Source: Petrosia ficiformis
Lineage: Eukaryota > Porifera > Demospongiae > Haplosclerida > Petrosiidae
DNA length: 64,000 nucleotides
Assembly: GCA_947044365.1 (NCBI GenBank)
Contig: OX345636.1
Coordinates: 18,826,548 to 18,890,547 of the forward strand
Direction: 5' to 3'
Shown: positions 20,375 through 62,069 of the stretch, piece after piece
Layout of the letters: each line of letters begins with the position of its first letter
How positions within the stretch are numbered: position 1 is the first letter of the stretch
Notes under the pieces: model-generated
The model's database searches: none
What the model saw: the letters and a program-made list of their open reading frames with translations, nothing else
Told to the model about the DNA's origin: nothing
Position numbers and translations under genes: made by a program

Positions 20375-23300
20375 ATGGCGACTATTGAGAGCCAACAGCA
20401 AGTAAAGGAATACACGATACATGTTGGCAACATCAGTTACAAAGTATGTTAGTTGATAGTATATTATCTTAATTACAAATTTACTTTATTTAGACAACAA
20501 GGAGAGAGTTGTCTGAATTCTTCACGATGTTTGGTGAAGTCAAGCACTGTTATATTGCAAAAGATCGCCGAAAAGGATGGTCTAGAGGGTATGTTAATGG
20601 TTTTTATTTCTGTTGTTTGATTATCACGTATCTAGCCTTTTCTTGCACATAAACCAACCATGGAAAGTAATGTTTAACAAATTTATGATCTTACATTCTT
20701 CCTATGGTTGGTTTCTTACAGTGTTCGATGTATACAATATATATATATATGTAATATAATTATGTATAATTATAAGGTAATTGCAGGTAACTCTGGACAC
20801 ACCCAAACTTCGGACAGTTATACCTATTTCTACAATAGTTCTACTGTCACTAGCTACGCACATATGCTTGAAAATGAGCATGATACAATGAGTATGTAAT
20901 ACTTTATTTACTCACAAATACGCAATTCACACTAACGAGTTGTAGCACTACTACTTATTAGTGTGATATTTGTAAGTAAATAAAGTATTGCATACTCATT
21001 GTATCATGCTCATTTTCAAGCATATGTGTGTAGCTAAAGTCTATTTGATTTCACTTTGCCATCAGAAAAATTGAAATAACTTTCTAATTATTCGACCAAT
21101 TTCAATATTACAAAGTTTATTAGACTGCTGACAGTCACGCGGTTCTAATGCTATATTTTTGACAGTTGTTAAATGTATAAATAAAGGGTTAGCTGTATTA
21201 CCCATAAGCAAAAGTATAGTGGATACCATTGACCACATGGAATGTAATTAATTTTGTTACGTGTGCTCCTTAAACAATAGAAGGAAAACGGCCAAGAAAA
21301 TGTAAGTGAAAACACTGTAATATCATTATATATATATATATAAATAGTATTTTATATAAGTATTTTATTAACACTGAAGTCTTCAGAAGTCCATCTGATC
21401 TTTGGCTGTCCTGTCTACTACTCTGTCTCTTAATGTTGATCTCTTGGCCTTCTTCTCCTCTTCAAAAAATCGTCGTACATTCTCTATAATGTATTTTGTC
21501 TGTGAAGTGAGGCGTATACCTCTTCCAGGCTTTTTGGCAACTTTCTGTGCCCGCAGTTGATTCAGAGGTGGATGGAATTGAAGATCTAGATCTCTTACCA
21601 CTACTCGTGTTAATATTATAGCTGCATACAACAATAATTTTGTTTCTTTGATTTTATATATACCCAGTAAAAAATTGTTTTAAAATCTCTGTATTATGCC
21701 TGCCTTCAAATAACTGCCACGAATTTACACGTGGTTTGGCGGGCGTCACCCGCCAATAAATCTCACCACAAAAATTTTAATTGCATATGCAAGTACATAT
21801 TTTTCTCTGAATTTTCTCCCACGCATAATTTACGGGGGCAAAGTGAACGCGAATGGACTTTAGTGACAGTAGAACTATTGTAGTTGCAATGCTGCTCTTC
21901 GTTGAGAACGAGTACGAAATAAGTATAACTGTCCGAAGTTTGGACGTGCCCAAAGTAACCCACAATTACCCTATATGATTATATATATGTGTAGTCTACC
22001 TCCATTTCCTGTACAAAGTCAATCAACAAAATTGAAATGAGCATGGTATAGGCTTATAGCCCCATGTACATGTACTTAATCTTTCTAAACGCTTCAAAAT
22101 TACAACGGGGTGGGCGTAGTGTGTACAGGTAGCTATATATGCAATCTTTGAGTGTTCACTTGAACGACGTGTACTACATTCTTCATAATTATTATTCATT
22201 GATAATTATGGGTCGTAATCAAAATGGCTGCTTCTTTAGCTCGGTAAGCTATAAGCCTTCCTATAACCATACTGGAAATCTGGAAGTCATAGTAGTAGTG
22301 GAAGATGCTTTTTAACATCATAACAGAAATGTAAGTAGTAAAATCATTATTAAAATGTAGTAAAAAAAAGTTTGAATTTGAAAAAGTTTGGGGGCAAACT
22401 GGGGGCGCCTCTGACAATATTAAATATGACTGCAGAGCAATACAAAAGAAAGGAAAGAACACTCACAAAGACTGTACTGCTACTTATAAGTTGTTCTGGA
22501 GAGGATTTACCTCCAGAAATGTATAGTATGATATATGTTAAAAGTGTGCATTATAGTGCATAAAAACTATTATAATACATTTAAGCATATATATTCTACC
22601 TAACACATCATTCACTTTATAAGTGTATTCCATTATTGATTACTTAGCAGGAAGACTTGTATGCAACTGATTTTTATACCACTATATGCGAAATTTAATG
22701 TAAATTTCAAAAATATAAGTTTCAAATAAATTATATGCTATCAATTTATGCACTTATGAATATTAAAATTTATCATAAACACCAAACGGGATGGAATAGC
22801 CCAGTTGACTATATATATATATATAATTATTACGTGTTTTGTCTATATACTCTGCTAGCTTACGTTTACATGTGAGCTAGTAGAGTATATAGACAACCAG
22901 GAAGAAAGGAGTTAGCAAACTGCACCAATAGCTGTTGTAGCACTGGTATAATTATGATAAAAAAATAAGGCAAGAATCTAGAAAACAAATTAATACGTTA
23001 TTGAGTTTCAGAAATAAGACATTCATTAGCAATTATTCTTGTAGGTGAGAACTTTGAAGCAGTTTCATAAACAATCGGTGTAATAAGAGTGGAATTGCAC
23101 TGCTTTTGAACTCAAGTACATTAGGGATATTTTTTCCTTCAGAGTTCTTGATAAGTTTTGAAGCATGGACCAAATTGGCGCATAAATGGTTAGTATGTGT
23201 TCCATTGAAAATACATCTTGAGCCAAGTAACAAAGTTGATCTTGTTAATGACAGTAAATCATAATTAACCGCGCCACTGGCCCAAAGAGGGAACTGTGCA

Positions 23301-23886
23301 GTGCCAAATAAGGAGCCCTTTGGGACAATGGTACACCATATAAGCTTATCAAAAACACTGTTTCCTCTATATATCTTAGGTTTGGTTTTGTGTCATTTTA
23401 CAATGCTGAGTCAATTGAGAGGATTTTCAATTCATCAGATGAGGACCTTGTTCTAGAGGACAGGTAATGTTTTAAAATGTTTGAACTTGTTATCATAAGA
23501 ATACATACACAATACTGTGATATTGTACGGCTTTAGTTGGATTGAAGTTCCTTAGAGATTAATTTTGATGTATTTCGAGGTGTGTAAAACATTTTTGGAA
23601 CCATGCTTATTTTAAAATCAAGAATTTGGTAATATATAGTCTGTTACCAACAGTTACTCAGAAATTGATAACTTATTGGTGGTAATCACTACTTGTAATG
23701 TGATTCACTTAATTTTTAAGTTGAAGTAAAATGTGAATCCTTTAAATTTATTTTTTACAGATTACTCCGTGTCAGTTATGCACAGAGTAAAAAACAGCGA
23801 CGAATTATTGTTGACGAAAACAATACTACCGTAGGAAATGAAGTGCAAGTATTGCAGGTGAAGGAATGTCAGGAGGAATTAACCAA
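20375..23886 (+). CDS. RRM-encoding exons 1-4 of the RRM/F-box/LRR gene
   Basis: Exon 1 carries RNP2 (residues 15-20). Exon 2 covers the first helix and loop ('SEFFTMFGEVKHCYIAKD'). The exon 2/3 junction splits the glycine of RNP1 ('SRGFGFVSF'), and exon 4 supplies the last strand ('LLRVSYAQSKKQRR') plus a linker. Both aromatic positions expected in RNP1 are Phe, and RNP2 has the usual hydrophobic/Gly/Asn pattern, so canonical RNA contacts are preserved. The 2.8-kb intron between exons 2 and 3 holds two MITEs. Confidence 0.85.
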
Positions 23887-26800: not shown

Positions 26801-29800
26801 TTCACTTTTCATCTTCTGAGAAACAGGAACTGATTCCAGACTGATGCTCTGTTTGCCATTTTTCATGCACGTGGCACTTTATTAATGATTAATTAATTTT
26901 AAAATGCAAAGAAAGAAAGAGGGATGATGGAAGTGTGGTGCAGTGCCATGCTTCCACACTTTAGCTACATCACTGAAGATGATAGTAATATGCAGTACTT
27001 TAACAAGCTAGTATACAATTATGCAATCCAGTCACAAGTTTGACACACAACCAAATGCGTGTGACACAGAACAGTGCATGTGACTCTACAACATCATGCA
27101 TGCTCCTTAGTACAGTCTAATGTAGATTATACCACTGATGAAGGTAGTTGTATAACTTCCGAAACGTTTGGTTATTATAAAAACAATTATTAATTGGTGA
27201 AAGTAAACATAGACCAATGGATATTACACTACCCAATCATTCAGGACTTTTCAATAAGTTCTAATACAAAGGCTTCTTTCAGTACCTCTGCTTATGGCAT
27301 ACTCTTCTTTCAGTATTAGGAATTGCATGCTGCTACTGCTAAACGATTTCGTTGTGCTGCTCTTAATTGGGTGAAGAATTCAGCTAAACTGAGGACTAAC
27401 CTCTCAGTGTACAGTGCTGGGGCAAGGACAGATAGATCTTGTGCTCTATTTTCGCATCAAGATCAAAGTGCAGTTTAAATTTATAACTCTGATTAAAAAG
27501 AGCCTGCTGCAAGCTATCATCTAACTATACTAGAAATTGCTTTTTGAGAAAGGATATCAAAGTACCAAAACATGGGTACTCTTTTATCGAGAGTGTTCTG
27601 TTTGTTTGTTTTTGGGGCAGTTTTTGCATGAAAATTGTGTTTGAAGTGCCCTACAAGTAGGGCTTTGCGATATTGGATAAATTAATATCACGATACTATA
27701 TCCTGGAAATACCCCATTATTACTAAATGTAGTACTAATAACTACATATATCTCTTTTGTATCCTGAAATTACTTTTACAACACTTTTCAATCAAAGTTA
27801 ATATAAATCAGTGATACCTATGTAATGATTAAGTGATAAAATGGTAAAATATATGTACAGTTCAAACATTTTTTGCTAGAAAAACTAGCATTTCCACCTT
27901 TTCTGGCTTTAAGCAAGCCCTTGTCAAAGTTACAACTTTTTCAGACTTACTAAACAGACGCTTGGAAGCAGTACTTGTGGCTGGTACAGAGAGATATTTC
28001 TTTGCAACTTTAGAGAATGGGATATATTTCTTCATGTCCCTTCCACCATTTAAGGGGATCTTTTTCAGCATGGTTCTTTCAGGTACATAGAGACTTCAAA
28101 CTTGATCTTTTGCGAAATTGCTATTGGTGAGTCTGTAAAGTACTGCCATATTGCACTTTTTGTCCTTGGTTTAAGTACAAGTTTCAGCAATTCGTCATCG
28201 ACTTCACAAACAGTGGGTTCCAAAGAGGGGTGAAATAACTTCTTCCATTCTTAAGCAGCACACTCTTATCTTTTGGTGATTTGGGGTTAAAGGTCTAACA
28301 TAAGTTATATAGTCATTCATTTGCTCTTTTGTTTCTTCTGTGAATATTAAGGTAACTCCCCCATAAGTTGCAGCGGTTTTATGATCCGCGACTCTGACTA
28401 ATATAGTCTTTTGTTCCACAAGTTTAAATACAGCTTCATAGACAATGTTAACTCGACGTCTTCAACGTTATGATATCGTTCAACAACGTTTCAATAACGT
28501 GTATACCATAATAACATTACTGTATTTTGATTATACTGTTATATACGATATTACTAACATGGAATAATAGATAGTAAAGATATAGTATCGTTGCCGATTT
28601 AATACCGTGGTAACTACTAATACCAATATGTTGCAAAGCCCTAGTAATGAGATAGGACTCAAAACACCGAGCATACCACTTTCCTACAACTGACTTTCTT
28701 CCTTTTCTGTAAAAATTTTAATCCTCCTGCTGTCAGCACCTCCTTCTAGTTTTCGCAAAACACGAAGATTAATGAGGTTTGAACAGTCATAGTAGTGTTT
28801 TTTCACATGTCAAAGCAAACCACAGAAAATGTGATAAAATGTTTGGTGGACATTGATTAACTTCAGTATGTATAGTTTCTGTGATGAAATGAGCTAACTA
28901 TTTGTTTATTACATTTGTACTCAGTCATACCAAAAAGATCTTTAGGAACCTTATCTTTTTCACTTTCTTGTTTCACATTTTGCTATTTACACCACTTTAT
29001 TGGCATGCATATTCATTATTCTTTGGTAAATGTTGAACACAGACATACCATTTGTATATGGGTCTTATACAACCAACAATCTGAGCCTGTTCATTAAATT
29101 TAACACCTCCAAAATCAATGACAATTATATCTCACCATATTACAATTACAGTCTAGTTTCAAACTTCAAGTGTCCTTGTATGTGTGTAGCCTTTATTGGA
29201 GATGTAATTTCCTGAAACGTTACTAAAGGTGCTTTTGTATTATCACCATCAGGAAAATGCCTGGAAGAAATGTTTGACTGTAACATCAACTTATTCTTAC
29301 AAATCCAAAAACTTTCTACCATTTTCACAGATAAGCTAAGGCCTAGTTTAACCAGAACTGAAGACTCCTCATCATTTTCAATTAACACTCTCGTACATTA
29401 CGCCACTTGTATTTATATTAAATAAACAATTGGTAACTTTATCTCTCTTTTTTCTTCAGAAATGTAAGGTATGAAAACTCAACTGTACTTAGTGATGATG
29501 CTCTCTTTCTGGTGTTCTCGTTTCTTGAATTGAAAGATTTAATCACAGTTGAAAGAGGTACATAGTATAGAAATAGTTAATTTAATCAGTAACTTATTTA
29601 AAAAGAATTTTAATTATTAATTTATTGCAAACTTATTGGTCATTCACAAATGTAAGTGTTGCAATGAACCTCTCTTGAGATAAAATGCATAATTATAGAA
29701 ACGTATAAGAGATAAGGAAAGTTAGAAATAAAGTGGAGCATAGTGCAATGCAATGCAGGGTAAATGAATGCACTGCTCGTGTATGTATTTCTAGTATGTA

Positions 29801-43850: not shown

Positions 43851-43885
<35 letters not shown>

Positions 43886-49800: not shown

Positions 49801-52800
49801 GACAGAAAATATAATGATAGTAACCCTCCACCTACGTTTGTGTGGGTTAATGAATTAGTTGTAGCTTTACTTATACCTGAAATTAGTAAATATTGACTAG
49901 TGAAGTTTCGCTGAAACTAAATGGTCTTGATTTTGATATCTATGTCATTCTATAGTAGTTTGAAATTTCCAAACTTTGTTTTAAATTTATTATTTGATCA
50001 AGGTCGATTCCCCACCTTAAAGAGTCAACTTCTCTCTGGAATTTTGTTCTATTAGCTTAATGCTAGTGTATACATAATTACATATAAATATTAAATTATT
50101 TTATATTAGATATTATATTATCTTACATGTATAATATTTTGTCATTCACAGAAAGCTTTCATTAGAAGGATGCTATGACATATCAGATGAAGGTCTGATA
50201 GGCCTATGTGATAGTCAGCTTCAGGACTTGAATATTAGTTACTGTAGAAAGGTGAGTTTAATGTTACTAATCCACTTATTTATTAACCTCTGGCAGAGGG
50301 TTATAGTAGTCTTCTGGTGTGTGTATGTCTGTGTGTGTGTCTGTGTGTTACTGCTTGATCTCCACCACTGCAAGGTCTTACTGTATTCTGAGCATATCTG
50401 CAGAATACTGGTATAGTGACAGGTAAGAAATAAAAGCGATTTGTTCTGAACTGGTCTTGTTTCAGAGAAACGTCCGTGTAAATTCTCGTTGATTTGTCAC
50501 CATCTTGAAATTTTATCATTTTTGCTGATGTCAGCAGGAAACACTGAAACACTAATTTTTGCCTCTTTGAAGCTTTGTTTCTTGGGCTTTGTCTATCGTC
50601 CTAACGAGTGTTTATACAGCTATTTGTGAAGTTCAGAAATTTGCTAGTTCTCAAGAGATCTGATGGCCATGCTATCCCATAATTTGCATATTCATGATGT
50701 ACTACTGACTTCTTAGTGTTGATACAAATGGTGTGTTCCTGGCTGTTGCAATAGGTTACTTAGGCAAAGTTGTTCTGAGTGTGTCTATTTATCATGAGTG
50801 TCATACATATAAAGATAGAACAAGTTTTAGCTGACATTTTGATCAAAACGTAATCTTTAAATGCTTATTGTTTGCCACTTTCGTAGATAACTTGGAGGAG
50901 CAATGGTTATATTCTTTATTTAGCTTGTAGTCGAAAATATTAGCAGGATGAAATCATGATGCACATGTTTATTTTTGAGTTGCTTAAATTGCTTTACAGT
51001 TTTGTTTTAAATATTTTTTTATTTCACAAATCTTTATGCAACAATTTAATTGAAACGTAGATTACTGATAGAGGAATTATAAGAGTTACTCTTAATGGTA
51101 CCCTAAGGAGACTTCAGGCTCGAGCCTGTTCTGAACTGACACTTTTGGGTAAGAATTCTTGTTAAAATTAATAATTATTAATCATTTCTTATACAATGAC
51201 TAACTTGGATGATGAATGAGAAAATTGTCATTTCATAAATATTTGTTGTTTGTTGAATTTAATCATCCAAATATTTGGTTGCCGTATCTTGTATATGAAG
51301 GAACTTTGGTGAGCTTTGGATTTGACTCAATAATGATGCATAGTATATGAATGTGTTGTTTTTGAAAGTAACAACATTAAAAATTATAAACATGGCAATT
51401 ATACAAACATCATTGAAAAAGGCAAACATAATGTAAAATATGCTAACATTAAATATATATATAAAGTATTTGTGTATTTCATCAAGTTCATCTTCACTAG
51501 GTTCAACTATTTCACTCATATGCATCGTTAGGTAATATTAGATCTCTAGCAATTCTTGGCCACAATGTATAAAACTTTCTCTCAGTAAGGGGTACTTTCT
51601 TACATTGAAACAGTTTCAATATGATAATCTGTCTAGAAGTGATGCATTAGATGAATTAGAACAACTTCACATGTTATAGTATATACTTGATTCATGGATG
51701 ATTTTGATGACCCTTGCAAGCCAACAACATTTCTTGGATATGATGTAGTAGGTGGTAAAAGGAGATAGTAAATATCAGAATGGCACCAAGGCCATCTTTG
51801 GAACCTGTGCACCATCTGTACCTAAACCTACAACATGTACATTATAATTTACTATTCATTACATAATTTGCTAATAACTGTTGCTTATCAACCAATATCA
51901 GTGTCCTTGTATGATGCAATATACTCTGGCATGAAAACGCTATATTTCATTAGCTTTTTTGCCATTTCACATGCTCCATCATGATCATCATCAGCAAGAG
52001 CTGGACATTTTGTAAACCTGAAGAGCTATTGTGTGACACAATGCTATAGGATGATAATGAAATTTGTGAACAGGTGTTTTCATGACTTTTCAAACACAAA
52101 TGCATCACACAGAAATGTGATCTTGAGTAAATTTAATTGCGATCTATCATTATTATTGCTTATAGCTCAATTTAAACAAGCTTACCTTGTGTGATAAGTG
52201 CTATGTTAGATCCAATCCAAGCATGGACTGAAAAACCTTTTCACTATTTATTGATCATACTTAGGTAATGATTATTGTGAAATGTTGATCACCACAGTTT
52301 TATGAATACACATGTGTATTAATTTCTATTGTTTACTAATCAGGTGTAACTGCTATAGTGGAACATTGTCCTGGACTCAGAGAACTTGATTTAAGTGGTT
52401 GTTTAGGTATAGGTAATAAACTACTAGCTGAACTGCAAAGAATATTATTAGATGATGAGAACTGTCACAGAAAATCATCAGAGTTTACTCTAAATATAGG
52501 AGGTAAGTACCACAACAAGTTTAATGTTTATAGTGTACAGTTTATAGTGCTACAGCATACATGTATGTCTTTAAAGAATAATAAAAAACATTTCCAATAA
52601 AAATGGAAGAAGATGTAGGGATGTCCAAACCCAAAAAGCATGCAAACAAGGTTGGGAAGCTAACATAGGACCCAAAATTAAACAAACCACTCCATATAAC
52701 CCTACATAAGTACTTACACTGCTATAAAACAAAATACAAAGAGCTGTACTTATGTAGGGTTATATGGAAGTGGTTTGTTTAATTTTGTGTCCTATGTTAG

Positions 52801-53555
52801 CTTCCCAACCTTGTTTGCATGCTTTTTGGGTTTTACTTACAAATGATGTACATTCTCTATTTCACTTACACCACTGTCTGCAGTCCTACAAGAAGTAGTG
52901 TCAGTCACTGTGTCAACCATTCAGTATTCCAATGCTTATCATAGTATACAATATTATTATACAATGTCTTTAATATTAATAATTAATGTATTCATTATTA
53001 TAAGAATGTATTTGCTCACAAATGTTATTACAATTCCAATGCAACAAGCACTTCCACCTTTTCAGCTTCAATGTTCCAAATGCGCATGCGTAATTAAATT
53101 CCACTTAGGAAAATGGCGTCCAATTGGAGATCAAACTTTTGTAGTCGTTGAGACTATCTTCTTTCATAGTATCTGAAGATATCATCTTGATAGTTGTAGA
53201 CCAGAATTTTACTATAAATGCGACTAGAATGGTGCTAAATTCATTGTGATAGTTCAACAAACAAAAAAATGAATATCATAATAATAATAATAATAATATT
53301 ATGATGAAGATTTTGCCAGTTTTGCCACTTGCCGGTTCTCTACCTTAACGACACTCTTTGGCCATCTAGACGGTGTTGGTAGTCATGAAAACACTAGATA
53401 TGAATAGGTATGTGTGTATTAAAACGTATGTGTATATATTACCAGAGATTTCAGCTCATCACTTGCAATTGAAATGTATGGGCGGCCATTTTTTTTCAGT
53501 GCCATCCCTATAATTGCTTTCTCACAAGTTTGAACTATATGTAATATATTATATA

Positions 53556-53586
<31 letters not shown>

Positions 53587-56500
53587 TGTATGTATTTGTG
53601 TTACTTACACAAGTATGCATTGTATACTTAGTTGAGTCATTCTGGGTTCTCGGTCAATTACTGGGCGTGGCACATAAAAGAATGCGCTGCAGACTGCAGG
53701 AAGACTTGGGAAGAATGTAAACCACTGTTGTATGTAGCGGTGAAACAGTATGAAGATGATGCAAGAATCTTTAGCAAGTAAGTATAATAAATTTAGAACT
53801 TGAGGGAGTGCCTCAGTCTCATGAAAGATCTGTTTGCTTAGACAAGTTCCACTTAGTTCTTCAGAACCCAGTTTTTGAATATGCAGAAAGTACCATCAGC
53901 AATGATTGATACATGGTCATCGCAAAGCAATTGTAGGGATACATTTTCTCAATATGTCTTGTTACATTATTTCATAATTACAATCATAGTGTAGTCTACT
54001 ATGTTTGAGTGCTTGTGCACTTCATTGTCATACACATGCATGTATCCCTTTGTGTCGCACAAATTCTATGTTGTATAAATGACTAGATAATCGTAATAGT
54101 AACTTTTACATTAGTATAGTCAACTTTCTTTTTTTTTTATATTTGTCCTTATCTTCATAATCATATGTCTGTGCTTGTTGCATTGTTATTACATGTTAAT
54201 TGCATACATTTCTCACCAGGTACTTTGATCACTACAGAAGCAACTGAAAAATTTGTGGAATGTACAAATGCTAATGTTTCCTTGCAAGATTTCTCAATCT
54301 CATCACTATGCGTTGATTATGATCCATACATGAACATAAGTGAGTTCTTAGGCAAAGTTATAGACTATGATTGTTTGTTATACAATTATGGAAGTGTTAT
54401 CCAGATCATTTCTAAAAGTACATAAATGCATACATATTTATGTAATGTCTTCGTTTCCTTTTGTTTCTCGAATAATGGGACTTTTGAAAGCTCTTCATTT
54501 ATATACGTTTACATGATCTTTGATTTGCTCAATGATGTATACAGTTATCTTTTTGGTCTATTCCTTTGCTTCCCTCTCTTGTCTTGAAATACAACAATAG
54601 AAGGGGATGAAGCTTGAGCTAAACGACAAACTACACTATCAGAAACCCCATGGAAGGCAGCCAATGGTTTTTGGCAGGCCACCTGCATTTTTGAGCCTAG
54701 AAGGAGTAGATGTAATGGTATACATGAGTGTGTGTGTGTGACCAATTTACTTACACAATATGTATAGCAAGCCCTTCTTGATACACAAGACTGTGAGGGG
54801 TTTCTGGGTCTTTGCCTCTTTACTTGGTTTGAGGTGATGAGGCTGAGGTAGGCATCTTGTAAATCTTTGTTACCATGTGTGTTGAAAGTTTCAAGAATGG
54901 TATCCGTCTACCTGGCTGAAGTGATCAAAGCACTTTTACTTACAGTGGCAAGTGCTACCAGTAACCTCAGTTTTTGAAAGTTAAAGGTGAGGTATATTAT
55001 TTGCCCTTGGCTCTTTTCGATTTTATTACATTACACTTCCATGTGTCTGGTCTACAGAGTCTCTTTCTTGGCCTTTTGGGTGATTCACTATCACTACTGC
55101 TGTTGGTGGAGGCTCCATTCCAGTAACATTTACTATGAGCGATACTGATGAGTAAAGAAATGCACTGATCTCTGCCCCAACTGCAACATAGCGGTAAAAG
55201 TAGTAGTCATTATGGAACAACGAAGTAATAAAGCTTTCACCAACTTCAAATGTACTTGAAAGCCACACTTAATCATAAGCTGCAATGTCACTTTGTCAGA
55301 CAGCAAAAAAATGGTAGCCCAATTTTACATATGCAAGGTAGAGTAAACGATCAATATTCGGACCATAGCTATAATCGGACAAAAATACAAGGAACTGACA
55401 GTATCAAATTATAAACTAAACACATATAAAGAAACACCAAAGGCATGATATAAACATAATAGTATGTAGTCCTTGGAAAGCTCCTGTACTCCGTGCTAAA
55501 TCAAAAATAGTGCCTAGTCCGAAACGATCGATGTTCAGACAAATCTATCGATGTTCGGACACGCAACAATAAAGTCGAATAGAACTGTGGGATTGCCAGT
55601 TTATTAGTACCGACAGATGGTGAAAACCGTCTGCTATATAACGCACCATACTAACAAATTCTGTTACAAGTTACTTGTCAACAATCAGGTTCAATCTCCT
55701 ACGATGACACGCCCTCAATTATTGGACTAATTTAATTGAACAATTAATTGAACAGTTAATTATAGATATTTGATTTAATGACAACAAACGAAGTTTTCAA
55801 GGGGCTTCTCCAGAGCCAAACAATACAGGTGGTACCATTTAAGGCACACATCACATGCTATCCAAATTGGATATTCGATATTAGTCTTATTGATAATGCA
55901 TGGTATACTACTGCATACAGTATCCTCTTCCATTTCTAGACCTACAGTAAAAGATGATAACATTAATTGGTTTGACTCAAACAAAGTAAAGATCATGAAA
56001 CAACTCTTCACACTTCACATACTTCATATATGAAGCCTAAATTGCCACACATTATGCTGGCATAATTATGGCAACCATTATGATGTAAATTCATCTAGTA
56101 GAATTATATAGCATTGTGTATAATAGCTTCATTTAAAAGAGACCTTTGAAAATAGCTATGAATATTACAATACCGCATCACCCCATCTAGCTTACTTACA
56201 AAGGAGTGTGTGCACACATTGATCATCACTTGCATGAATTACATAATAGCTTAACATAGTTGGAAATGTGTGCAATAAAAAAAAGGCTCCATGCATGAGC
56301 ATTGTAATGAGTATCCATGTCAATACTGTACTCATCAAATATCTCAAAACTGCATGTACTTTTAGTAATATTTTTTGCAGGTCCTTCTGTAATTGTAACA
56401 TTAAGTTTATACAAGTTATCAAAATAACCATCACATGGTTACAAATTAGAATATGTCTCACTTTCATCGTCATACTCATCAGGTTTCTTAGAACTGCATG

Positions 56501-59500
56501 TAGTTTTATTAATAGCACCTCTTCCTGGTCTTTTTGTATTTGTAACTCTAGATTCAACTTTATTAACATATTAAAATAATTACATGTACACGGTCACAAA
56601 TTAGAATAGGTCTCACCTTCATAGCCATACTCACCTCTTCCTGGTCTTTTAGTATTTGTAACATTAGGTTCAACTACAACACACAGTATTAATTCCATGG
56701 AAATAAGAATAATTATATAGGCTTTATTCACCTTCACTGCTACAGTAAGATGTATTGACACATCTGGTTTCTGTATAATGGGATGTACATGTATAAGTAA
56801 TATCTTTTTCAGTTTGATGGGAAGACTTCGTGCCAACAATAGATGGTATAGAATCTGTGTAATTAATAAAATGTAACAGAGAAGTATTTTGAGTACCTAC
56901 CACAAAGAGGATGAATCATAGAAGAATTGATTGAGATATTGCATTCATAATTTTCATCATCCATTTCCGGATTATATGTATCTAAGAATGAATGATAAGG
57001 TAAGGATGAATTTATGTGCATATGTAAAAAGGGACAATAAAGTACAATTAACTAAACTGCAAATCTTTAGTACTATATAGTCTGCAGTGATATGCACAAA
57101 TCATTATTAATATAAACATGGTAATATTTGCCAAGCTTTCAAAAGCTCAATTATCAAATTTAACATGTGATATGTTCAACTTGACCAGGTTTCAACAACA
57201 GTACCTACAACTTTATTGTTTATACAATAATTCCCTTAAGCTTCATGTGAAGCCCAAAATTGATTAATCCCTTGGTCTATCTAGATAGTTGACAACTTCT
57301 GAATACACTTTACCTGCTATTGATTTAATCCTCCTGCCTTTCTCTTTTTGTTCTTTTTCTTTCTGTTTAGTGATTCTATTTTCCTCTCTTAGCTTTTGAA
57401 GTTCTTTTGCTGCTTCAGCTTTAGCCTTCTTCCTCTCTTCCCTCTCTTCTTTAGCTCTCTGCTTCCGTTGTATTTCATCTTGCTTTTTTCTTTCTCTTTC
57501 ATGAAGTATCTTCATATTTTCCACACTAGTTAAAACTCGACCACAAGATTTAGGCTTTAATATTTTTTTTGGTAGGTGGCTCAGGATAAGTGAAAAACTT
57601 TTCAAGTGTTTTTGGTTCACCAGAAGGCATACACACTTGATCTAAAGATTTGATAGGATGGCTCTCAGATTGAACATAAGGAGATGAATCAGGTGTAAAT
57701 GGTACATTTAAAAGTATTGATGCTTCCTCAGGGTGTTCTATTCGTAGCCACTGGTTATATCAGTCATCACAAATAAGGTCATATCCTTCTTCAAACCGTT
57801 TGTTAAAAGTAAATAATTCTTCATCAGTGAAACTAATCTTAGGTGACTGGTGATGACGTCTAGCTGGCATTGGACTATACATTGGAATAAATGTTAAATT
57901 ACTCTCGAAACGTGATGATGGTATTGCAGTTGTACACCTAGATAGAATTGCATCTCTGTTAAGGGGATATATTCCTGTTGTTGCAAATCCTGCCATGATG
58001 TTACCAATGGTCATTGACTTCATCCATGCATCTGAAAATAATTTTGAAAATGTATATCGTGTTATCGCTTTGCTTGGGTTGTCTACTAAATACTGATAAC
58101 ACACTTCTCTCCACATACACTTTAAAGGGCCAAAACACCCCTTGTCAAGTGGTTGTGACAAATGACTTGTATGGGGAGGAAGAGCAAACAAAATTATGTC
58201 CTCCTTTGCTGCCTTAAGAATGGTTTCTGGGCAGTAGTGAGAGGAGTGTCCATCCAGTAATAACAAAATAGGTCTAGCAACAGGAACATATCGTAAAAAG
58301 TGGTTATGGAACCATATGTCAAACAGTTCACTATCCATCCATCCACGTTCAGAAAGACCATAAATGGTTCCTGGTACCTCCCCTTCAGTCAGAGCAGGTG
58401 CTAGAGTTTTGCGGTCCCAGATCACCATGGGTGGCATACAGAAACCACCAGCATTAACACATCCTACTACTGTTATCTGTGATTTATCACCTGATGACAG
58501 AGCCACAGGATTTCGATTTTTACAAGAATATATGCCTTTGGGTGGTTTAGGATTTAAGGGCATACCAGTCTCGTCCATATTAAAGATTAAACAAGGTTGA
58601 TTACGAAGACTATAGTTATCAAGAGTTTTCTCAAGTAAATCAAAATAGTTTTCAAATATTTCAGGATCAGTAGCAGTAGCACGAGCATGAGAGAGTGGTG
58701 CAGCAATTCTTAACATTAAATTTGGGTGTCGCTTAGTAAAAGAGGTCCACCACCCATCACTAACCGTACGATAGATTCCTCTTGATTCATTTATTCTTTG
58801 TATTAAGGCAATAACCTGCTTCCGAGTTTTTGCATATCCAATAGTGGAACAACGCAACAGAAACTGTACAAGATCTTGCTCCTCTGTATCCTCTAAATAA
58901 TTTGCTGGCCCACTTACAGCACCTGGTTTAATTCTACCGCTAACTCTGTCGCCTAAAGTAGATTTGGGAACATTGTGCTCCATTGCAACTCTTCTAACAC
59001 TAAAACCATGATTAATAACATCATTGAGAGCATGTGCCATTTGCTCTTCACTCCATAGTTTATATTGCCCATATCTAACGCTTTCATTAACAGGTGACAG
59101 GTGTGTATATTTTGGTTGCACAGAATTAAACTCTTGATTTGAGAGATAAATATGACATTCCTACACGGTAATATAAAATTTAGATAAGAATGTTTATATT
59201 ATTATTCCACTCAGAATGCATCTATAGAGGCAAAATTATGATAACAGTAATCTGAACTCGATTGTTTAAATTTGTTTTCAAATAAAAAGGTGTGAATACA
59301 AGCAAAAGAATAATAATTGTTTTTTCACCACACATGCTCTTAAGCAAAGGCATTTTTACACATTGACTCACTGAAACTATTCAAGTAGTACTCCAATGAG
59401 GTTTTGTATTATAGCTTTTTCTATGCAAAACTATTACTTGTATCAACTATGGTTGTTACTGGAGACCCAAGAGGAAGCTGAATCAAAATAGAAATCTAGA

Positions 59501-61613
59501 ACAAATATGCATAAGGCTAAGACAACCAAATTAAAATAATAAATTTGAATGGGGGGGGAGCAATGCAAGTGTACAAAAGCACCTATAAAAATGGTTGGCC
59601 TAATTAATATTAATGACAATTAATTAATTTACGTTTAAATTTAAAATATGCAGCCAACAAGGTATTTATTTACTTGGAATCTCCATAGTTAACAAACTAA
59701 AACGATACTAACCATTAAAATCATAACATTTTCTTGGGGACCTAGGCCCCCACAATTGGCCACACCACAAATTATGTACAGGCATTTCATTAGTAAATCC
59801 TACTCTATACTTGGCTTCTAAGGAATATTTCTATCAACACCCACAATTAATTTTTACTACTCAAAAAAAGTAAAGAATTATGAGCTCTGAAGTTGAATTA
59901 TGGCACCAGATGCAATGAATATTTGGTGGCTAATGAACCTTCAATAATTTATGCATAATTCAGTACTCTCATAACCTTTTTACAAATTGGAACAAATTAT
60001 ATGATAACCATTATAATCATTATCCATTGTTTTTAATAACCTTGAATCGCCATAACTTGAGTAGGAAACTTCAATCTTCTAGAGGGAAAAAATATAAACA
60101 TATCATAGCTACTCTGCCTACTCAGCCTACTCAGCAGATCTAAATACTTACTCTTCAGCTTTTAGTGCACAAGGTGATCCTGAGGAGCATGCGCAATGCA
60201 ATTTTAGAAGTCCGATAATTGAGGGCGTGTCATCGTATGAAATTGAGTATGATTGCAGAAATGCAACTTGCAACAGAATTTGCAAGTATAGTGCGCTTTG
60301 TAGCAGACATTCGCCACCAACTGATGGTATTAATAAACTAGTAGTCTGACGTTTCTTTTCGATTTTATTGTTGGGTGTCCGAACATAGATAGATTTGTCT
60401 GAACATTGATCGTTTCGGACTCGGAACTATTTTTGATGTACCACGCAGTACAAGAACTTTCCAAGGACTACTCGCTATTATGTTGATATCATGCCTTTGG
60501 TGTTTCTTTATATGTGTTTAGTTTATAATTTGATACTGTCAGTTCCTTGTATTTTTGTCCGATTATACCTGTGGTCCGAATATTGATCGTTTACTCTACA
60601 TTGCTGTTCTCAGATGTGACCCAATGAAGCATGGACTCAGTGCGGAATTTAAGTGATCCATATCCACAGAAAAGTGTGATACTCATAGTTGTTGCTCAGT
60701 GTGATGAATGTAAATAATAGTGATTATTTCAAAATCTTTCAGTTTTGGACTTGAACTGTTCTTTCATTATGATGGTCATTTAGTGCATTCTATCGTGAAT
60801 CAACAACAGGAATCATATGACCAGAAGTAGGTTCATTTTCACTTTGAAGAACGTCCATGGTTTCTGCAAAGTTTTGCATCACTGTAGTGCAGTTACTTTA
60901 AAAAAATTTTCTTTATCTTCAATGGTTGCATGAGGTGTGCTTGCAGTTAACTAAAACTAAAACCCTTTTAGTAACCATAGTATTATTTTAGTTAATAAAC
61001 TAAACATTCGAGAAAATCATTCTTTCAAACCATGAATTAATACATTGTAAGGACGTTGCATAAATTTTGTAATAATATTTAAGGTAGCTGTAAATTAATT
61101 ATTACCAACATGTAAAAAATTTAGTTAGTTGTCCATTTTTACTACAAGAATTCAGTGTTTCCACAAAAGGTGGTACCATGGCTCCACCCACTATTTACTT
61201 TTTTGCTCCCCTAACCAATAGTTTACACTAGTTTTCATATAGAACATCATGCACCACTGAAGCACTCCTCCACCTGGGGAATATTAAGAATTATATCACT
61301 CGGGTTATAATGTTGGCTTCAAATTCTGCCTATGATTTGATACAGTTACACTTTATTGAAGTACATAACTAGTGTTATACTTTTCTGTATTTTAGATCCA
61401 TTGGATGTTGATGATTGGGAATCAGATCATGAACCTTGTATTGTGTTACCAGGATTAGCACATGAAGCACATCAAGGAGCAATAGACATTGTTGAAGAAG
61501 AGCATTTTGTGAAGGATTTTCTCCTAGAAAGAGCAGAAGACTGGTTGATTGGGGAAGATCCTGCAATGTTCAGCGATGAATTTTCAGATCCTGAAGAATG
61601 GGGAATACATTAA
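20375..61613 (+). CDS. RRM - F-box - leucine-rich-repeat protein (19 exons, 641 aa)
   Basis: This is a probable RNA-binding substrate adaptor of an SCF ubiquitin ligase. Exons: 20375-20443, 20494-20588, 23380-23463, 23761-23886, 29460-29557, 43165-43377, 43639-43736, 44508-44545, 44601-44676, 46819-46878, 47965-48075, 48343-48391, 48919-48962, 49062-49141, 50152-50251, 51061-51148, 52344-52502, 54220-54339, 61396-61613. Every junction is GT-AG, the phases agree throughout, and the total is 1926 nt with stop. The start ATG has a good context (agcATGG). Domain order: RRM at about residues 13-95 (RNP2 'IHVGNI', RNP1 'RGFGFVSF'), F-box at about 134-170, leucine-rich repeats at about 185-540, acidic tail. 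Less certain are exon 13 (donor GTTAGC) and the last junction. I recall C. elegans EEED8.10 as a possible architectural relative, unverified. Confidence 0.85.
20770..21090 (+). mobile_element. Old MITE, copy A (interrupted)
   Basis: 'cccaaacttcggacagttatac', 'acaatagttctactgtcacta' and 'tcactttgcc' occur in order and match, on the opposite strand, the element at about 21740-21968. Copy A is split by a nested 182-bp palindromic MITE. Confidence 0.7.
20853..21034. mobile_element. Nested palindromic MITE with TA target duplication
   Basis: Two arms of about 80 bp ('gctacgcacatatgcttgaa' and its near complement) form a long hairpin. TA flanks both sides (20851-20852, 21035-21036). The sister MITE at 21740-21968 has the uninterrupted sequence 'cactaaagtc' (read on the minus strand), which is the empty site. 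A TA duplication suggests mobilisation by a Tc1/mariner-type transposase. Confidence 0.8.
21383..21634 (-). pseudogene. Possible N-terminal fragment of a DDE transposase
   Basis: The minus strand reads 'RLTSQTKYIIENVRRFFEEE', resembling the HTH region at the start of some IS630/DDE_3-like proteins ('K..I..NVY.FF..E'), followed by a basic segment with 'RVVDRTAKDQ'. Only this N-terminal stretch is visible, so the assignment is weak. It could be an exon of a decayed element inside intron 2. Confidence 0.3.
21740..21968 (-). mobile_element. Old MITE, copy B (empty-site copy)
   Basis: This is the inverted relative of copy A. It preserves the uninterrupted stretch 'actgtcactaaagtccattc' on the minus strand and has an apparent end at 'tagggtaattgtgggttac' (minus). 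Confidence 0.65.
22840..22895. other. 20-bp hairpin
   Basis: 'gtctatatactctgctagct' pairs with 'agctagtagagtatatagac' across a 14-nt loop, with one mismatch. It lies in intron 2 of the RRM/F-box gene. Confidence 0.75.
24122..25000. other. Intron 4 segment, no gene seen
   Basis: It contains a short tandem repeat of 'tgtactc' (about 24352-24376). No recognisable coding. Confidence 0.5.
25050..26300 (-). pseudogene. hAT-type transposase pseudogene (ZNF862-like group)
   Basis: On the minus strand an N-terminal scrap 'DLMYCKICRKVNW' (about 26250-26190) is followed by weak segments. 'HAKEAVKYIEKRFQSKGVL' (25648-25457) comes next, then 'PINTVVCERGFSMMNCIKTE' (25400-25050), the hAT dimerisation signature of this group, ending with 'PPVNYWEP'. 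The order matches domesticated or mobile ZNF862/C17orf113-like proteins. Frame breaks separate all three parts. It lies antisense in intron 4. Confidence 0.6.
26301..27124. other. Intron 4 segment, no gene seen
   Basis: Minor local repeats ('tatagtgca' words near 26530-26590, 'gcagcgatgcagcaatgcagcag' near 26630). No coding pattern. Confidence 0.4.
27125..27215 (+). ncRNA. Hammerhead-ribozyme-like core motif
   Basis: 'CTGATGA' (27135-27141) is followed by a potential stem II (GGTAGTT/AACTTCC around a GTAT loop, with one mismatch) and then 'GAAAC' (27161-27165). These are the conserved core blocks of hammerhead ribozymes found in Penelope-like elements and related repeats. A short stem I (ACCA with TGGT at about 27200) is possible. 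I cannot place a clean stem III and cleavage site, so this may be a decayed copy or chance. Confidence 0.3.
27658..28643 (-). mobile_element. hAT element remnant with ZBED-like C-terminus
   Basis: The ends carry inverted 'tagggctttgc' and 'gcaaagcccta'. Inside, the minus-strand ORF 27862-28071 reads 'FSKVAKKYLSVPATSTASKR' followed by 'LFSKSEKVVTLTRACLKPE', the dimerisation signature of ZBED/Ac-type hAT transposases ('A.KYL.VPATS..SER.FS.AG..V...R..L.PE'). The usual Glu of 'SER' is Lys here. The upstream minus ORF 28204-28419 may be a shifted piece of the same protein. No matching 8-bp target duplication remains. At 986 bp it is internally deleted. Confidence 0.65.
28644..29459. other. Intron 4 segment, no gene seen
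   Basis: Short frames on both strands, no recognisable motif. It ends at the acceptor 'tttcttcag' of exon 5. Confidence 0.4.
29460..43377 (+). CDS. F-box-encoding exons 5-6 of the RRM/F-box/LRR gene
   Basis: Exon 5 reads 'LSDDALFLVFSFLELKDL' and, across the splice, 'ITVERVCKRWYEL'. This matches the F-box consensus (LP.D.L..VF.FL...DL..V..VC+RW) that binds Skp1. The leading proline is Ser here, a common variation. The 13.6-kb intron cuts between Arg157 and Val158 and holds the piggyBac, the NHL duplication, a second piggyBac and MITEs. Exon 6 continues into the first leucine-rich repeat ('ELQYLDLSAS'). Confidence 0.85.
30440..30897 (+). repeat. Interspersed repeat, copy 1
   Basis: This matches 35618-36057 over about 450 bp, with shared blocks such as 'aattggctggtctgtttctt', 'ctacatctctctcaggtgtt' and 'attgggtttcgttgaggaag'. 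I see no terminal repeats and cannot name the family. Confidence 0.8.
30985..31095. mobile_element. hAT-type MITE terminus
   Basis: Several 'cgataatat' words form small palindromes, ending in 'gtggtatcgcccaaccctac'. Read inversely this begins 'tagggttgggcgatacc', typical of hAT-derived MITE ends. The other terminus is not clear. Confidence 0.5.
31316..33856 (+). mobile_element. Complete piggyBac transposon with TTAA duplication
   Basis: The body 31320-33852 (2533 bp) has 14-bp perfect terminal inverted repeats (ctcgttgcgtgcca) flanked by TTAA at 31316-31319 and 33853-33856. Copy B of the surrounding duplication at about 37718-37755 contains the same flank joined without the element ('acattaattaataata'), which fixes the boundaries. 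Subterminal 'cacgcgcctat' repeats occur twice at the left end. Confidence 0.95.
31467..33500 (+). pseudogene. piggyBac transposase, three exons, one frameshift
   Basis: Proposed exons are 31467-31626, 31705-32065 and from 32137, with in-phase GT-AG introns. The N-terminus is acidic, as usual. The core has 'HISIDETMIGFRGRFGSRQY', 'YHIVTDRYYSSVPL' and 'MNGVDLADQL', giving the three expected catalytic aspartates. The C-terminus has a cysteine-rich finger ('CILCSK...YHCKTC...CPIPCFEKYHT'). An A8 run near 32785 shifts the frame, and the two long frames overlap there; one A fewer would join them. This is the only break I see, so the copy is young. It may be a sequencing error or a real lesion. Confidence 0.85.
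33874..34164 (-). other. Unrecognised minus-strand ORF in copy A
   Basis: 96 residues, preceded on the minus strand by an acceptor-like 'ttttcatatag', so it could be an exon. It contains 'FHHMKTDVHGLFESEISKLV' and 'SGGMGCLTMVNQKMGPF'. I do not recognise the family. Copy B (37764-38054) has only one residue difference, near the C-terminus. Confidence 0.35.
34424..34981 (+). pseudogene. NHL-repeat protein fragment, copy A
   Basis: The plus strand reads 'DGYILVTDNHRLQKLTFKGD' and then, after a one-base shift at a T-run near 34640, 'VSNVTFDNEGCLYAVDCDNS' and 'IDNNLVYIVEYDSYRISMFD'. These are NHL beta-propeller blades as in TRIM-NHL and related proteins ('G.IYV.D....RI..F...G'). The RING/B-box part is absent. 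The same frameshift is in copy B, so the lesion predates the duplication. Confidence 0.65.
35618..36057 (+). repeat. Interspersed repeat, copy 2
   Basis: Second copy of the 30440-30897 repeat. It abuts the right edge of duplication copy A and is absent after copy B. Confidence 0.8.
36058..37740. other. Spacer between the two duplication copies
   Basis: AT-rich, with long T-runs near 36808 and 37260. Open frames here have no recognisable motif. From about 37718 the sequence matches the left flank of the piggyBac (the empty site). Confidence 0.5.
37764..38054 (-). other. Unrecognised minus-strand ORF in copy B
   Basis: Counterpart of the ORF at 33874-34164, with one residue changed (Leu to Arg near the end). 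Confidence 0.35.
38315..38880 (+). pseudogene. NHL-repeat protein fragment, copy B
   Basis: Same blades and same frameshift as copy A. It differs at a few residues and ends a little differently because of small indels. Confidence 0.65.
39686..41810 (-). pseudogene. Second piggyBac (PGBD4-like) transposase pseudogene
   Basis: Reading down the minus strand: an acidic N-terminus, a Gly/Arg-rich stretch ('GRGRDRGRARGQGRGK', about 41400), 'FFDNKIVQKICDATNEYAE', then after an in-frame stop at 40972 'MFSRNRFESYMSFLHV', 'CEISIDERMVRSKARFSFRQ', 'GYSLYSDNFYTSPILV' and, past a second stop at about 40267, 'NYNRFLNGVDHSDQL'. A frameshift near 40150 leads to the C-terminal finger ('CVYCKL...RHCRKCEAPLCVFTRECFQKFHM') and a basic tail. 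The three catalytic aspartates are still visible. A probable intron lies at 41691-41740. It differs clearly from the element at 31320-33852, and I found no certain terminal repeats. Confidence 0.8.
41872..42186. mobile_element. hAT-type MITE
   Basis: The ends are inverted: 'agggcggatttaggggg' on the left and 'tcctgtatccgcccct' on the right. A long G-run follows the left end. Flanks resemble each other ('aacacc' and 'gaacac') but no exact 8-bp duplication survives. Confidence 0.6.
42376..42710. mobile_element. MITE with 'gtgatgcaccgataatcgg' terminus
   Basis: The right end, read on the minus strand, is 'tgttagtgatgcaccgataa' and continues 'tcggatcg', a terminus typical of widespread hAT-like MITEs. 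The left end holds 'ctgccgataccgatagtcga'. The left boundary is uncertain. Confidence 0.5.
43639..52502 (+). CDS. Leucine-rich-repeat exons 7-17 of the RRM/F-box/LRR gene
   Basis: Successive exons carry AMN1/FBXL-type leucine-rich repeats: 'CPKLIDLDLTRATLT', 'LNHIEYLNIQGNRQIT', 'NPNLEVLEINHCDSIS', 'LQNLEVLVLNHRVEM', 'CHKLRKLSLEGCYDIS', 'SQLQDLNISYCRKIT' and 'CPGLRELDLSGCLGIG'. The regular 'C..L..L.L..C..I.' pattern is that of FBXL substrate-binding horseshoes. Exon 13 (48919-48962) was placed because it restores both phase and the 'LQNL|EVLVL' repeat. Using a longer version with a later GT breaks the frame. Confidence 0.85.
43815..44233 (+). mobile_element. MITE, 'catccctatgattgc' family, full copy 1
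   Basis: 18-bp terminal inverted repeats: 'catccctatgattgcttt' at 43815-43832 and 'aaagcaatcatagggatg' at 44216-44233. The interior includes a (TA)n tract (43855-43881), 'gtcaattaatgggcgtgg' and 'gcctgaaatatattcc'. It sits in intron 7. The flank 'atggcccgtaggg' is itself palindromic with the element end. Confidence 0.85.
44677..46818. other. Intron 9, no gene seen
   Basis: I see no supported coding. A minus-strand frame near 45240-45060 has cysteines ('CRCTACEEAFICKDQQP') that could be a decayed zinc-binding segment, but nothing else supports it. Confidence 0.3.
46879..47964. other. Intron 10, no gene seen
   Basis: AT-rich, no repeats or coding patterns recognised. Confidence 0.4.
49448..49598 (+). 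mobile_element. MITE, 'catccctatgattgc' family, truncated copy
   Basis: It starts with the same terminal repeat and continues through 'cggtcaattaatgggtgtgg' to 'aaaagaacgc', then stops. The right half and right terminus are missing. Confidence 0.8.
50316..50350. repeat. (TG)n microsatellite
   Basis: 'tgtgtgtatgtctgtgtgtgtgtctgtgtgtt' in intron 15. Confidence 0.85.
51149..52343. other. Intron 16, no gene seen
   Basis: Short minus frames (51259-51525, 51633-51815) without recognisable motif. Confidence 0.4.
52627..52833. mobile_element. Fold-back (near-perfect palindrome) MITE
   Basis: The left arm 52627-52713 and right arm 52746-52833 are complementary over about 87 bp with only a few mismatches, separated by a 32-bp loop. 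The arms begin and end with 'aaacccaaaaagcatgcaaa'. It lies in intron 17. The target duplication is unclear. Confidence 0.85.
53276..53299. repeat. (ATA)n microsatellite
   Basis: About seven 'ata' units in intron 17. Confidence 0.85.
53503..53941 (+). mobile_element. MITE, 'catccctatgattgc' family, full copy 2
   Basis: Left repeat 'catccctataattgcttt' (53503-53520) and right repeat 'aaagcaattgtagggata' (53924-53941). The interior has a (TA)n/(TATG)n tract and 'cggtcaattactgggcgtgg', collinear with copy 1 at 43815-44233. It sits in intron 17. Confidence 0.85.
54220..61613 (+). CDS. C-terminal exons 18-19 of the RRM/F-box/LRR gene
   Basis: Exon 18 contains a strong donor (ATAA|GTGAGT at 54340). 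Splicing to the acceptor 'tgtattttag' before 61396 keeps the frame and yields 'DPYMNINPLDVDDWESDHEP'. The tail is acidic and ends 'FSDEFSDPEEWGIH'. The alternative is read-through to a TAA at 54423-54425. I prefer splicing because donor strength, phase and composition agree, and because the 61.4-kb exon has no other upstream partner. The intervening 7-kb intron contains the pogo transposon. Confidence 0.6.
54545..54705 (-). pseudogene. Possible exon of a DDE-type transposon protein
   Basis: On the minus strand, after an acceptor-like 'ctccttctag', the frame reads 'CQKPLAAFHGVSDSVVCRLA' and 'DKRGKQRNRP'. This resembles a segment ('C...F...HGI....V.R......P.DKRG.H.NRP') found before the DDE domain in several animal transposon proteins. 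It is a single short fragment, so weak. Confidence 0.3.
55775..56840 (-). pseudogene. Downstream exons of the pogo-like gene, ending in a PHD-like finger
   Basis: The last minus-strand segment (56011-55775) reads 'IPCIINKTNIEYPIWIACDV' and 'CLKWYHLYCLALEKPLENFV' and then C, matching the half PHD finger ('W..C..C..WYH..C') at the C-terminus of some pogo/Jerky-like proteins. Between 56840 and 56192 short repeated segments ('TRRGA' and 'TKRPGRGEYGYE'-like words next to acceptor-like sites) look like several small exons of low complexity. Exact splicing is not resolved. Confidence 0.5.
57264..59121 (-). pseudogene. pogo-like transposase (Psq/CENPB HTH and DDE_1)
   Basis: A 453-residue open frame (59121-57760) is followed by a frameshifted coiled-coil part. 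The N-terminus has a Psq-type helix-turn-helix ('EEQMAHALNDVINHGFSVRR', 'HNVPKSTLGDRV'). A CENPB-like second HTH follows ('WWTSFTKRHPNLMLR'). The DDE_1 core carries 'FNMDETGMPL', 'LLLLDGHSSHY' and 'PPHTSHLSQPLDKGCFGPLK', giving three acidic residues. A TGA at 57760-57762 sits where related proteins have a sense codon ('D..Y..WL...HP'), and an A8 run near 57560 shifts the frame before a highly charged coiled coil ('RKQRAKEEREERKKAKAEAA'). Damage is small, so the copy is recent. Confidence 0.9.
60599..61395. other. Rest of the last intron, no gene seen
   Basis: AT-rich. It ends with the acceptor 'tgtattttag' of exon 19. Confidence 0.5.
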
Positions 61614-61949
61614 AGTACAAAATTTTATCCTTCATGTTACATGTCTAATTCATAATCTGTTTTCATTTTTGTAACCTATATTCTATATTTGTTAATCACA
61701 AACGTGTTGTAACTACATAGTATAATAATTTTAATGCTGTTTTGGAAAGGTGAAATCGAGAATCAGAAATGTTGGATGAAAATATATATCCAGGAGTGGA
61801 AACAGTCTTTGGAATATGATTATAATAGTATATTAAACATTGTATAAACCCATGACTATCTGAGACGACAATAATGCAGTGCCTACCATAATGTTAACCG
61901 GATATAGGCCTAGTCTAGTTATGAAAACGCCCACTTCTGGACTTACTTC
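61614..61949. other. 336-bp intergenic region
   Basis: It lies between the stop of the RRM/F-box/LRR gene and the ATG of the next gene on the same strand, so it must hold the 3' UTR of one and the promoter of the other. No canonical AATAAA is clear. Confidence 0.5.
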
Positions 61950-62069
61950 ATGTCAAACGAGGTACGTTAGTTTATGAAAAGCAACATTACATATTTTACA
62001 TAATTATTATATTCCACAGTGGACAATTAAACTGAATACTGGAGCTGAGATACCAGCTTTTGGTTTAGG
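61950..62069 (+). CDS. Aldo-keto reductase, first two exons (partial)
   Basis: Exon 1 (61950-61961) encodes MSNE and ends at a GTACGT donor. Exon 2 (62020-62069) follows the acceptor 'attccacag' and encodes 'WTIKLNTGAEIPAFGLG', ending at GG|GTAAGT. 'L.TG..IPA.GLGTW' is the first strand and coenzyme-proximal loop of NADPH-dependent aldo-keto reductases, and the residues after the junction should be Thr-Trp/Phe. I found no convincing third exon before the window ends, so the rest lies beyond 64000 behind an intron that contains a MITE and an antisense RecQ fragment. Confidence 0.65.

What the first reader, a model, noticed from the sequence alone, without database searches (positions are those of the whole stretch)
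20375..61613. A host gene that joins an RNA-recognition motif to an F-box/LRR ubiquitin-ligase adaptor
Nineteen GT-AG exons on the plus strand give one 642-codon frame with an intact RRM (RNP2 and RNP1 both canonical), an F-box and a long AMN1/FBXL-type repeat array. F-box proteins normally recognise proteins through the LRR; an N-terminal RRM implies RNA-guided or RNA-tethered ubiquitination. The architecture is uncommon, and the reading frame has stayed intact while its introns filled with transposons, so it is probably under selection.
Basis: partly seen in the sequence, partly recalled or inferred. Interest (0 to 1): 0.85.

Follow-up and report, generated by a model that had tools for sequence, protein, structure and literature searches.

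The report
Sponge RNA-binding F-box ligase adaptor
This probable sponge gene really does join an RNA-binding domain to a protein-tagging (ubiquitin ligase) adaptor, but the same combination is already recorded, almost unstudied, in snails, clams, worms and insects, so it belongs to an old animal gene family rather than being a new invention.

Summary
Confirmed: nineteen exons with GT-AG introns on the plus strand (20375-61613) splice into one 642-codon frame encoding RRM, F-box, about 13 leucine-rich repeats and an acidic tail. It is not unique. Its nearest relatives are database proteins named "putative RNA-binding protein EEED8.10" and similar, in molluscs, an annelid, hymenopterans, a leafhopper and a nematode, with the same domains. 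A profile of 23 relatives matches the spliced protein at 454.6 bits over residues 7-608. A tree of F-box+LRR alone puts it with them at 100/99 support. So the RRM-F-box join probably predates the sponge-bilaterian split, and the two-gene alternative is very unlikely. A further detail: the sponge protein and 9 of 9 full-length lophotrochozoan members end in an acidic tail with E-x-W-x-[LMI]-x at the C-terminus. Best reading: substrate receptor of an SCF ubiquitin ligase whose RRM contacts RNA or ribonucleoproteins. RNA binding, Skp1 binding and ubiquitylation are inferred only. Verdict: new member of a known, nearly uncharacterised family.

The parts
20375..20443 (+). exon 1: start codon, RNP2 (residues 1-23)
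20494..20588 (+). exon 2: RRM, first residue of RNP1 (24-54)
23380..23463 (+). exon 3: RRM, rest of RNP1 (55-82)
23761..23886 (+). exon 4: end of RRM and start of linker (83-124)
29460..29557 (+). exon 5: end of linker and F-box, first part (125-157)
43165..43377 (+). exon 6: F-box, rest, and first LRRs (158-228); best conserved exon, 166 of 335 aligned residues identical to five lophotrochozoans
   Evidence: (64.2 bits alone)
43639..43736 (+). exon 7: LRR
44508..44545 (+). exon 8: LRR
44601..44676 (+). exon 9: LRR
46819..46878 (+). exon 10: LRR
47965..48075 (+). exon 11: LRR
48343..48391 (+). exon 12: LRR
48919..48962 (+). exon 13: LRR; least certain exon
   Evidence: 73/1000 shuffles as good; best of 11 candidates
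49062..49141 (+). exon 14: LRR
50152..50251 (+). exon 15: LRR
51061..51148 (+). exon 16: LRR
52344..52502 (+). exon 17: last LRRs and first residue of the conserved G-G-T
54220..54339 (+). exon 18: rest of G-G-T, end of LRR domain, start of tail
61396..61613 (+). exon 19: acidic tail ending in E-x-W-x-[LMI]-x and the stop codon
29558..43164 (+). intron 5 (13,607 b), carrying DDE_Tnp_1_7 (piggyBac-type) transposases on both strands
54340..61395 (+). intron 18 (7,056 b), carrying a DDE_1 (pogo-like) transposase on the - strand

Best explanation
The gene is a sponge member of the EEED8.10 family: an FBXL-type F-box protein with an N-terminal RRM and an acidic C-terminal tail. Most likely it works as the substrate receptor of an SCF (Skp1-Cul1-F-box) ubiquitin ligase: the F-box docks on Skp1, the LRR horseshoe and possibly the C-terminal Trp motif hold the substrate, and the flexibly linked RRM brings the ligase to RNA or to ribonucleoproteins so that RNA-bound proteins are ubiquitylated. 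Shown here: gene structure, domain order, family membership, conservation of F-box core residues, of an aromatic RNP1 residue and of the tail motif. Inferred: Skp1 binding, ligase activity, RNA binding, RNA-directed substrate choice.
For: Intact frame and splice sites; RRM, F-box, LRR over Pfam cut-offs; full-length match to the family profile; F-box+LRR tree with RRM left out, 20 family rows against 25 other F-box/LRR or LRR proteins, 100/99 for the separating branch; same domains in relatives; L135, L147, V158, W170 identical in 24 of 24 rows and C159, R161, W162 in 23 of 24; RNP1 position 5 aromatic in 22 of 22 rows with a residue there; AlphaFold model of a snail relative (P0145): RRM, 59-residue low-confidence linker, three-helix F-box, LRR solenoid, low-confidence tail, best PDB match SKP1-bound FBXL2 6o60, then FBXL17; C. 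elegans EEED8.10 is called an F-box gene in PMC5423972 (passage).
Against: No transcript, binding or ligase data for this gene, and none seen for a relative. The RRM face varies: His at RNP2 position 2 here; RNP1 position 3 non-aromatic in 11 of 22 rows, and insect rows lack the RNP1 Gly, so RNA specificity is unlikely to be conserved and weak or no binding is possible. Two relatives (P0047, P0073) show no RRM; they look like truncated models, which was not proved. In the tree the sponge row falls among molluscs and annelid (83/89, not starred), not at the base. LRR solenoids outside ligases, such as ribonuclease inhibitor, also match the model well.
Confidence: 0.55

Rival explanations
1. The protein is an SCF substrate receptor, but the RRM is a protein-protein module (as in UHM-type or other non-RNA-binding RRMs; recalled) that recruits protein substrates without RNA.
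For: RNP2 position 2 is His here; RNP1 position 3 is non-aromatic in 11 of 22 rows; insect RNP1 lacks Gly.
Against: RNP1 position 5 aromatic in 22 of 22 and RNP2 position 2 F/Y in 19 of 21 rows, a pattern expected of an RNA-binding beta-sheet (recalled); best PDB sequence matches of the RRM are RNA binders: Nab4, hnRNP D-like, PABP, hnRNP A1.
Confidence: 0.3
2. The F-box protein works outside a ligase, for example as an RNA-processing factor that uses Skp1 only as a stabiliser.
For: C. elegans eeed8.10 is named among AS-NMD genes under PHA-4 control (PMC5563511, passages); the same paper collated 83 'splicing mediators' by homology and literature, so the label may rest on the RRM alone.
Against: Strongly conserved F-box core; LRR solenoid closest to SCF receptors FBXL2 and FBXL17.
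Confidence: 0.12
3. Two neighbouring genes (an RRM protein and an FBXL) misjoined by the reader.
For: Introns of 5,573 and 13,607 bases lie before and inside the F-box; no cDNA.
Against: The same fusion in mollusc, annelid, insect and nematode proteins; phases fit throughout; full-length profile match.
Confidence: 0.02

Closest known systems
EEED8.10 family (database name 'putative RNA-binding protein EEED8.10'; e.g. Haliotis rubra P0001; other members under other names: Gigantopelta P0145, Owenia P0147, Setaria digitata P0043)
   Same: Same order RRM - linker - F-box - LRR - tail; aligns over residues 7-608; grouped at 100/99 on F-box+LRR alone
   Different: 34% identity over 81% of the query to the best-scoring database hit; RNP2 His; shorter N-terminus than most; sponge host
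FBXL2/FBXL17/SKP2-type SCF receptors
   Same: F-box followed by LRR solenoid; among the top sequence and structure matches in PDB
   Different: No RRM in these (recalled); this family is separated from the 25 other proteins tested (FBXL2, FBXL17 and SKP2 themselves were not rows)
FBXL3
   Same: F-box/LRR protein whose C-terminal tail carries a functional Trp (W428 enters the cryptochrome FAD pocket; PMC9845712, passage)
   Different: There Trp is the last residue and the substrate is known; here Trp is fourth from the end, in an acidic tail, partner unknown
RNA-binding ubiquitin ligases (RBULs)
   Same: Combine an RNA-binding domain with the ubiquitin system
   Different: PMC5707401 (passages) defines them as HECT, RING or RBR enzymes; 'F-box' and 'cullin' have 0 occurrences in its main text; here the RNA domain sits on a cullin-ligase adaptor

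Membership tests
EEED8.10 family | RRM, F-box and LRR in this order in one protein | tested here: met
EEED8.10 family | Full-length sequence similarity to known members | tested here: met
   454.6 bits, residues 7-608
EEED8.10 family | F-box+LRR part groups with the family's, not with another FBXL | tested here: met
   100/99 support, 20 against 25 rows
EEED8.10 family | Similarity to the C. elegans EEED8.10 sequence itself | not tested
   The C. elegans protein was not retrieved; membership goes by database names and the nematode Setaria P0043
SCF substrate receptors (FBXL) | F-box with conserved core | tested here: met
   Pfam F-box-like 36.6 bits; core residues conserved
SCF substrate receptors (FBXL) | LRR substrate-binding solenoid | tested here: met
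   model of relative P0145, not of the window protein
SCF substrate receptors (FBXL) | Binds Skp1-Cul1 and promotes ubiquitylation | not testable with these tools
   needs biochemistry
RNA-binding proteins of RRM type | RNP1 consensus (recalled) | tested here: met
   RGFGFVSF
RNA-binding proteins of RRM type | RNP2 consensus with aromatic second position (recalled) | tested here: not met
   IHVGNI, His16
RNA-binding proteins of RRM type | Binds RNA | not testable with these tools
   needs CLIP or in vitro binding
RBULs (RING/HECT/RBR with RNA-binding domain) | RING, HECT or RBR catalytic domain | tested here: not met
   no such Pfam match at E <= 0.001

The most novel reading that the evidence does not exclude
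A cullin-based ligase present since the root of animals in which RNA, read by the RRM, chooses the substrate, and a C-terminal Trp peptide on an acidic tether (kept from sponge to snail) plugs into the substrate or folds back on the LRR as a gate, in the manner of FBXL3's Trp tail.
Probability: 0.25. Interest if true: 0.75.

Novelty: new member of a known kind. Interest (0 to 1): 0.42.

Why it matters
An RNA-binding domain fixed on an SCF adaptor from sponges to molluscs, insects and nematodes would be a direct route from RNA to protein ubiquitylation. The family goes in databases by the name of a worm open reading frame; the held library names EEED8.10 in two papers, and in the passages seen neither studies its function. 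The sponge copy suggests that the fusion is as old as the split of sponges from other animals, if descent was vertical, and that the extreme C-terminus is under constraint, which gives a concrete part to test.

Tried and rejected
An exon at 48703-48752 between exons 12 and 14 was tried and rejected: it brings an in-frame stop. Two-gene reading rejected on relatives and phases. C. elegans mel-47 was considered, from memory, as a possible neighbour of EEED8.10 and looked for (search listing only, 20 of 1,723 papers listed); dropped, none of those papers was opened. Kinesin-light-chain 'W-acidic' motif considered from memory for the tail; sponge and Solemya ends seem not to fit; dropped without a tool test. 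dN/dS was not computed: no close relative available. Paralogues in the own genome were not assessed: the protein search of the own genome did not complete. Distribution beyond the named groups cannot be judged: one search scored only the 7997 candidates sharing most words and listed no hit named as another sponge; (profile, 120 of 193 hits listed) showed no further RRM-bearing member and did not list several known (P0002, P0004, P0009, P0011, P0016; 8 hits at E <= 1e-8) did not list the insect members. So no absence claim is made for cnidarians, deuterostomes or other sponges. Paper searches for an RRM/F-box combination: none, 20 of 257 papers listed, of which one was opened (PMC5707401); one paper on another matter (a plant transcriptome); none; one on another matter (bacterial toxin systems). 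The library lacks most subscription journals.

Full report
What is there. Nineteen exons on the plus strand, 20375-61613, with 18 GT-AG introns, join into 1926 nucleotides, 642 codons with the stop. The start ATG has an in-frame TAA 26 codons upstream at 20297. Introns run from 50 to 13,607 bases. Candidate poly(A) signals ATTAAA/TATAAA lie at 61832 and 61843, before the next gene. The window lies at 18.83-18.89 Mb of contig 1 of a 191,215,263-base assembly in 29 contigs. This fits Petrosia ficiformis, a demosponge (191.25-191.27 Mb, 18 chromosome-level scaffolds, longest 63.28 Mb; PMC12648040, start of abstract and passages). The paper gives 35 scaffolds, so the species, and that it is a sponge, is an inference.

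Domains. Pfam: RRM_1 at residues 16-76 (1.3e-12), F-box-like 138-172 (3.8e-9), F-box 135-169 (1.2e-7), LRR_6 and LRR_4 over cut-off. By eye there are about 13 repeats of the LRR type seen in FBXL proteins. PDB sequence matches: FBXL2 (6o60, 1.7e-24), FBXL17 and SKP2 for the F-box/LRR; Nab4, hnRNP D-like, PABP and hnRNP A1 for the RRM. RNP1 is RGFGFVSF.

Relatives. A database search gave 112 proteins at E <= 1e-3; 14 of the 112 carry a precomputed RRM: Haliotis rubra (34% identity over 81%), Mya, Tegillarca, several hymenopterans, the leafhopper Graphocephala and the nematode Setaria digitata. The six best hits are all of these; many of the rest are general F-box/LRR proteins of plants. A profile search listed 120 of 193 hits and no further RRM-bearing member. 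A search from the Haliotis F-box/LRR region gave 8 proteins at E <= 1e-8, all mollusc or annelid family members, adding two more Haliotis, Gigantopelta, Solemya, Lottia, Mercenaria and the annelid Owenia. It did not list the insect members, so it is not sensitive enough for absence claims. Of 22 members scanned, 20 match RRM_1 and 22 F-box-like. These 22 were picked by me as family members, so the figure describes the chosen set.

Is the chain real. A profile from 23 relatives (aligned together with the window protein, whose row was then removed) scores the spliced protein 454.6 bits, aligned over 7-608. The same profile on 3881 six-frame open stretches of the window finds 11 of 19 exons at i-E <= 0.2, all plus strand; exon 10 follows at 2.9, and two minus-strand chance matches have i-E 0.95 and 1.5. 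Some single LRR exons align to another repeat of the profile. Against five lophotrochozoan relatives 18 of 19 exons beat at least 999 of 1000 within-exon shuffles; exon 13 does not (73 of 1000 as good). The alignment was fitted to the real sequence, which favours it. Among 11 frame-compatible alternatives for exon 13 the chosen one is best, 454.6 against 447.1 bits.

One origin of the fusion. A tree of residues 130-530 (F-box and LRR, RRM left out) with 19 of the 23 relatives (P0144, P0022, P0023 and P0047 left out), the window protein and 25 of 126 other retrieved proteins places the window protein with the family, on one side of a branch with support 100/99. The tree is unrooted. Inside the family the sponge row falls among molluscs and annelid (83/89, not starred), which does not follow the animal tree; several branches are long. 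With vertical descent the RRM was joined to this F-box/LRR protein once, before sponges and bilaterians parted.

The tail. The last 60 residues hold 17 acidic and 2 basic residues. The terminal pattern [ED]-x-W-x-[LMIV]-x-stop is met by the window protein and 9 of 23 relatives: the 9 full-length lophotrochozoan ones (a 390-residue Tegillarca model ends early); in these ten the first residue is Glu and the fifth is L, M or I. The insect and nematode members do not meet it, though two insect ones have Trp third from the end. None of 126 other retrieved proteins meets it. This supports exon 19 across its 7-kb intron and suggests that the C-terminus is a functional peptide. FBXL3 offers a precedent for a Trp tail in an F-box/LRR protein (PMC9845712, passage).

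Structure. AlphaFold of the Gigantopelta relative with 22 rows (mean pLDDT 77.3, pTM 0.70) gives an RRM, a low-confidence 59-residue linker (118-176), a three-helix F-box, a confident LRR solenoid and a low-confidence tail ending in a short helix. Foldseek's best PDB match is SKP1-bound FBXL2, then FBXL17; plant F-box receptors follow, but so do ribonuclease inhibitor and NLR proteins, since the solenoid is a common fold. A flexible linker fits an RRM that reaches for RNA independently of the LRR, but shows no binding.

Literature seen. EEED8.10 occurs in two papers of the library: one calls it the F-box gene upstream of pink-1 in an operon (PMC5423972, passage); the other names eeed8.10 among AS-NMD genes whose promoters bind PHA-4 (PMC5563511, passages). 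A paper on RNA-binding ubiquitin ligases defines them by HECT, RING or RBR domains and counts at least 26 putative human RING-type ones (PMC5707401, passages). Searches for RRM-F-box proteins brought nothing relevant among what was listed.

Verdict. What is added: a sponge member, evidence for a single origin of the fusion, and a conserved C-terminal Trp motif. RNA-directed ubiquitylation remains a good untested hypothesis.

Noticed in passing
window 32042-33500 (+): DDE_Tnp_1_7 (piggyBac-type, name recalled) transposase with zf-Tnp_2 in intron 5, split over two overlapping reading frames.
   Followed up: partly
window 39686-41727 (-): A second DDE_Tnp_1_7 transposase in intron 5, opposite strand; two adjoining open stretches match, and a third next to them (39686-40207) has no Pfam match.
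   Followed up: partly
window 57760-59160 (-): 466-codon open frame with DDE_1 and Psq-type HTH (pogo-like, name recalled) in intron 18.
   Followed up: partly
window 33880-35600 and 37700-39500: Two long, closely similar direct copies inside intron 5, seen by eye.
   Followed up: no
window 15374-16989 (-): LINE-like pieces upstream of the gene: endonuclease (Exo_endo_phos, over cut-off) and a reverse transcriptase match below its cut-off.
   Followed up: no
window 61950-62068 (+): Probable first two exons of an aldo-keto reductase gene (family named from memory) about 340 bases after the stop codon.
   Followed up: no
window 54340-54425 (+): Reading through the exon 18 donor gives a 28-residue alternative C-terminus, without the Trp motif.
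   Followed up: no
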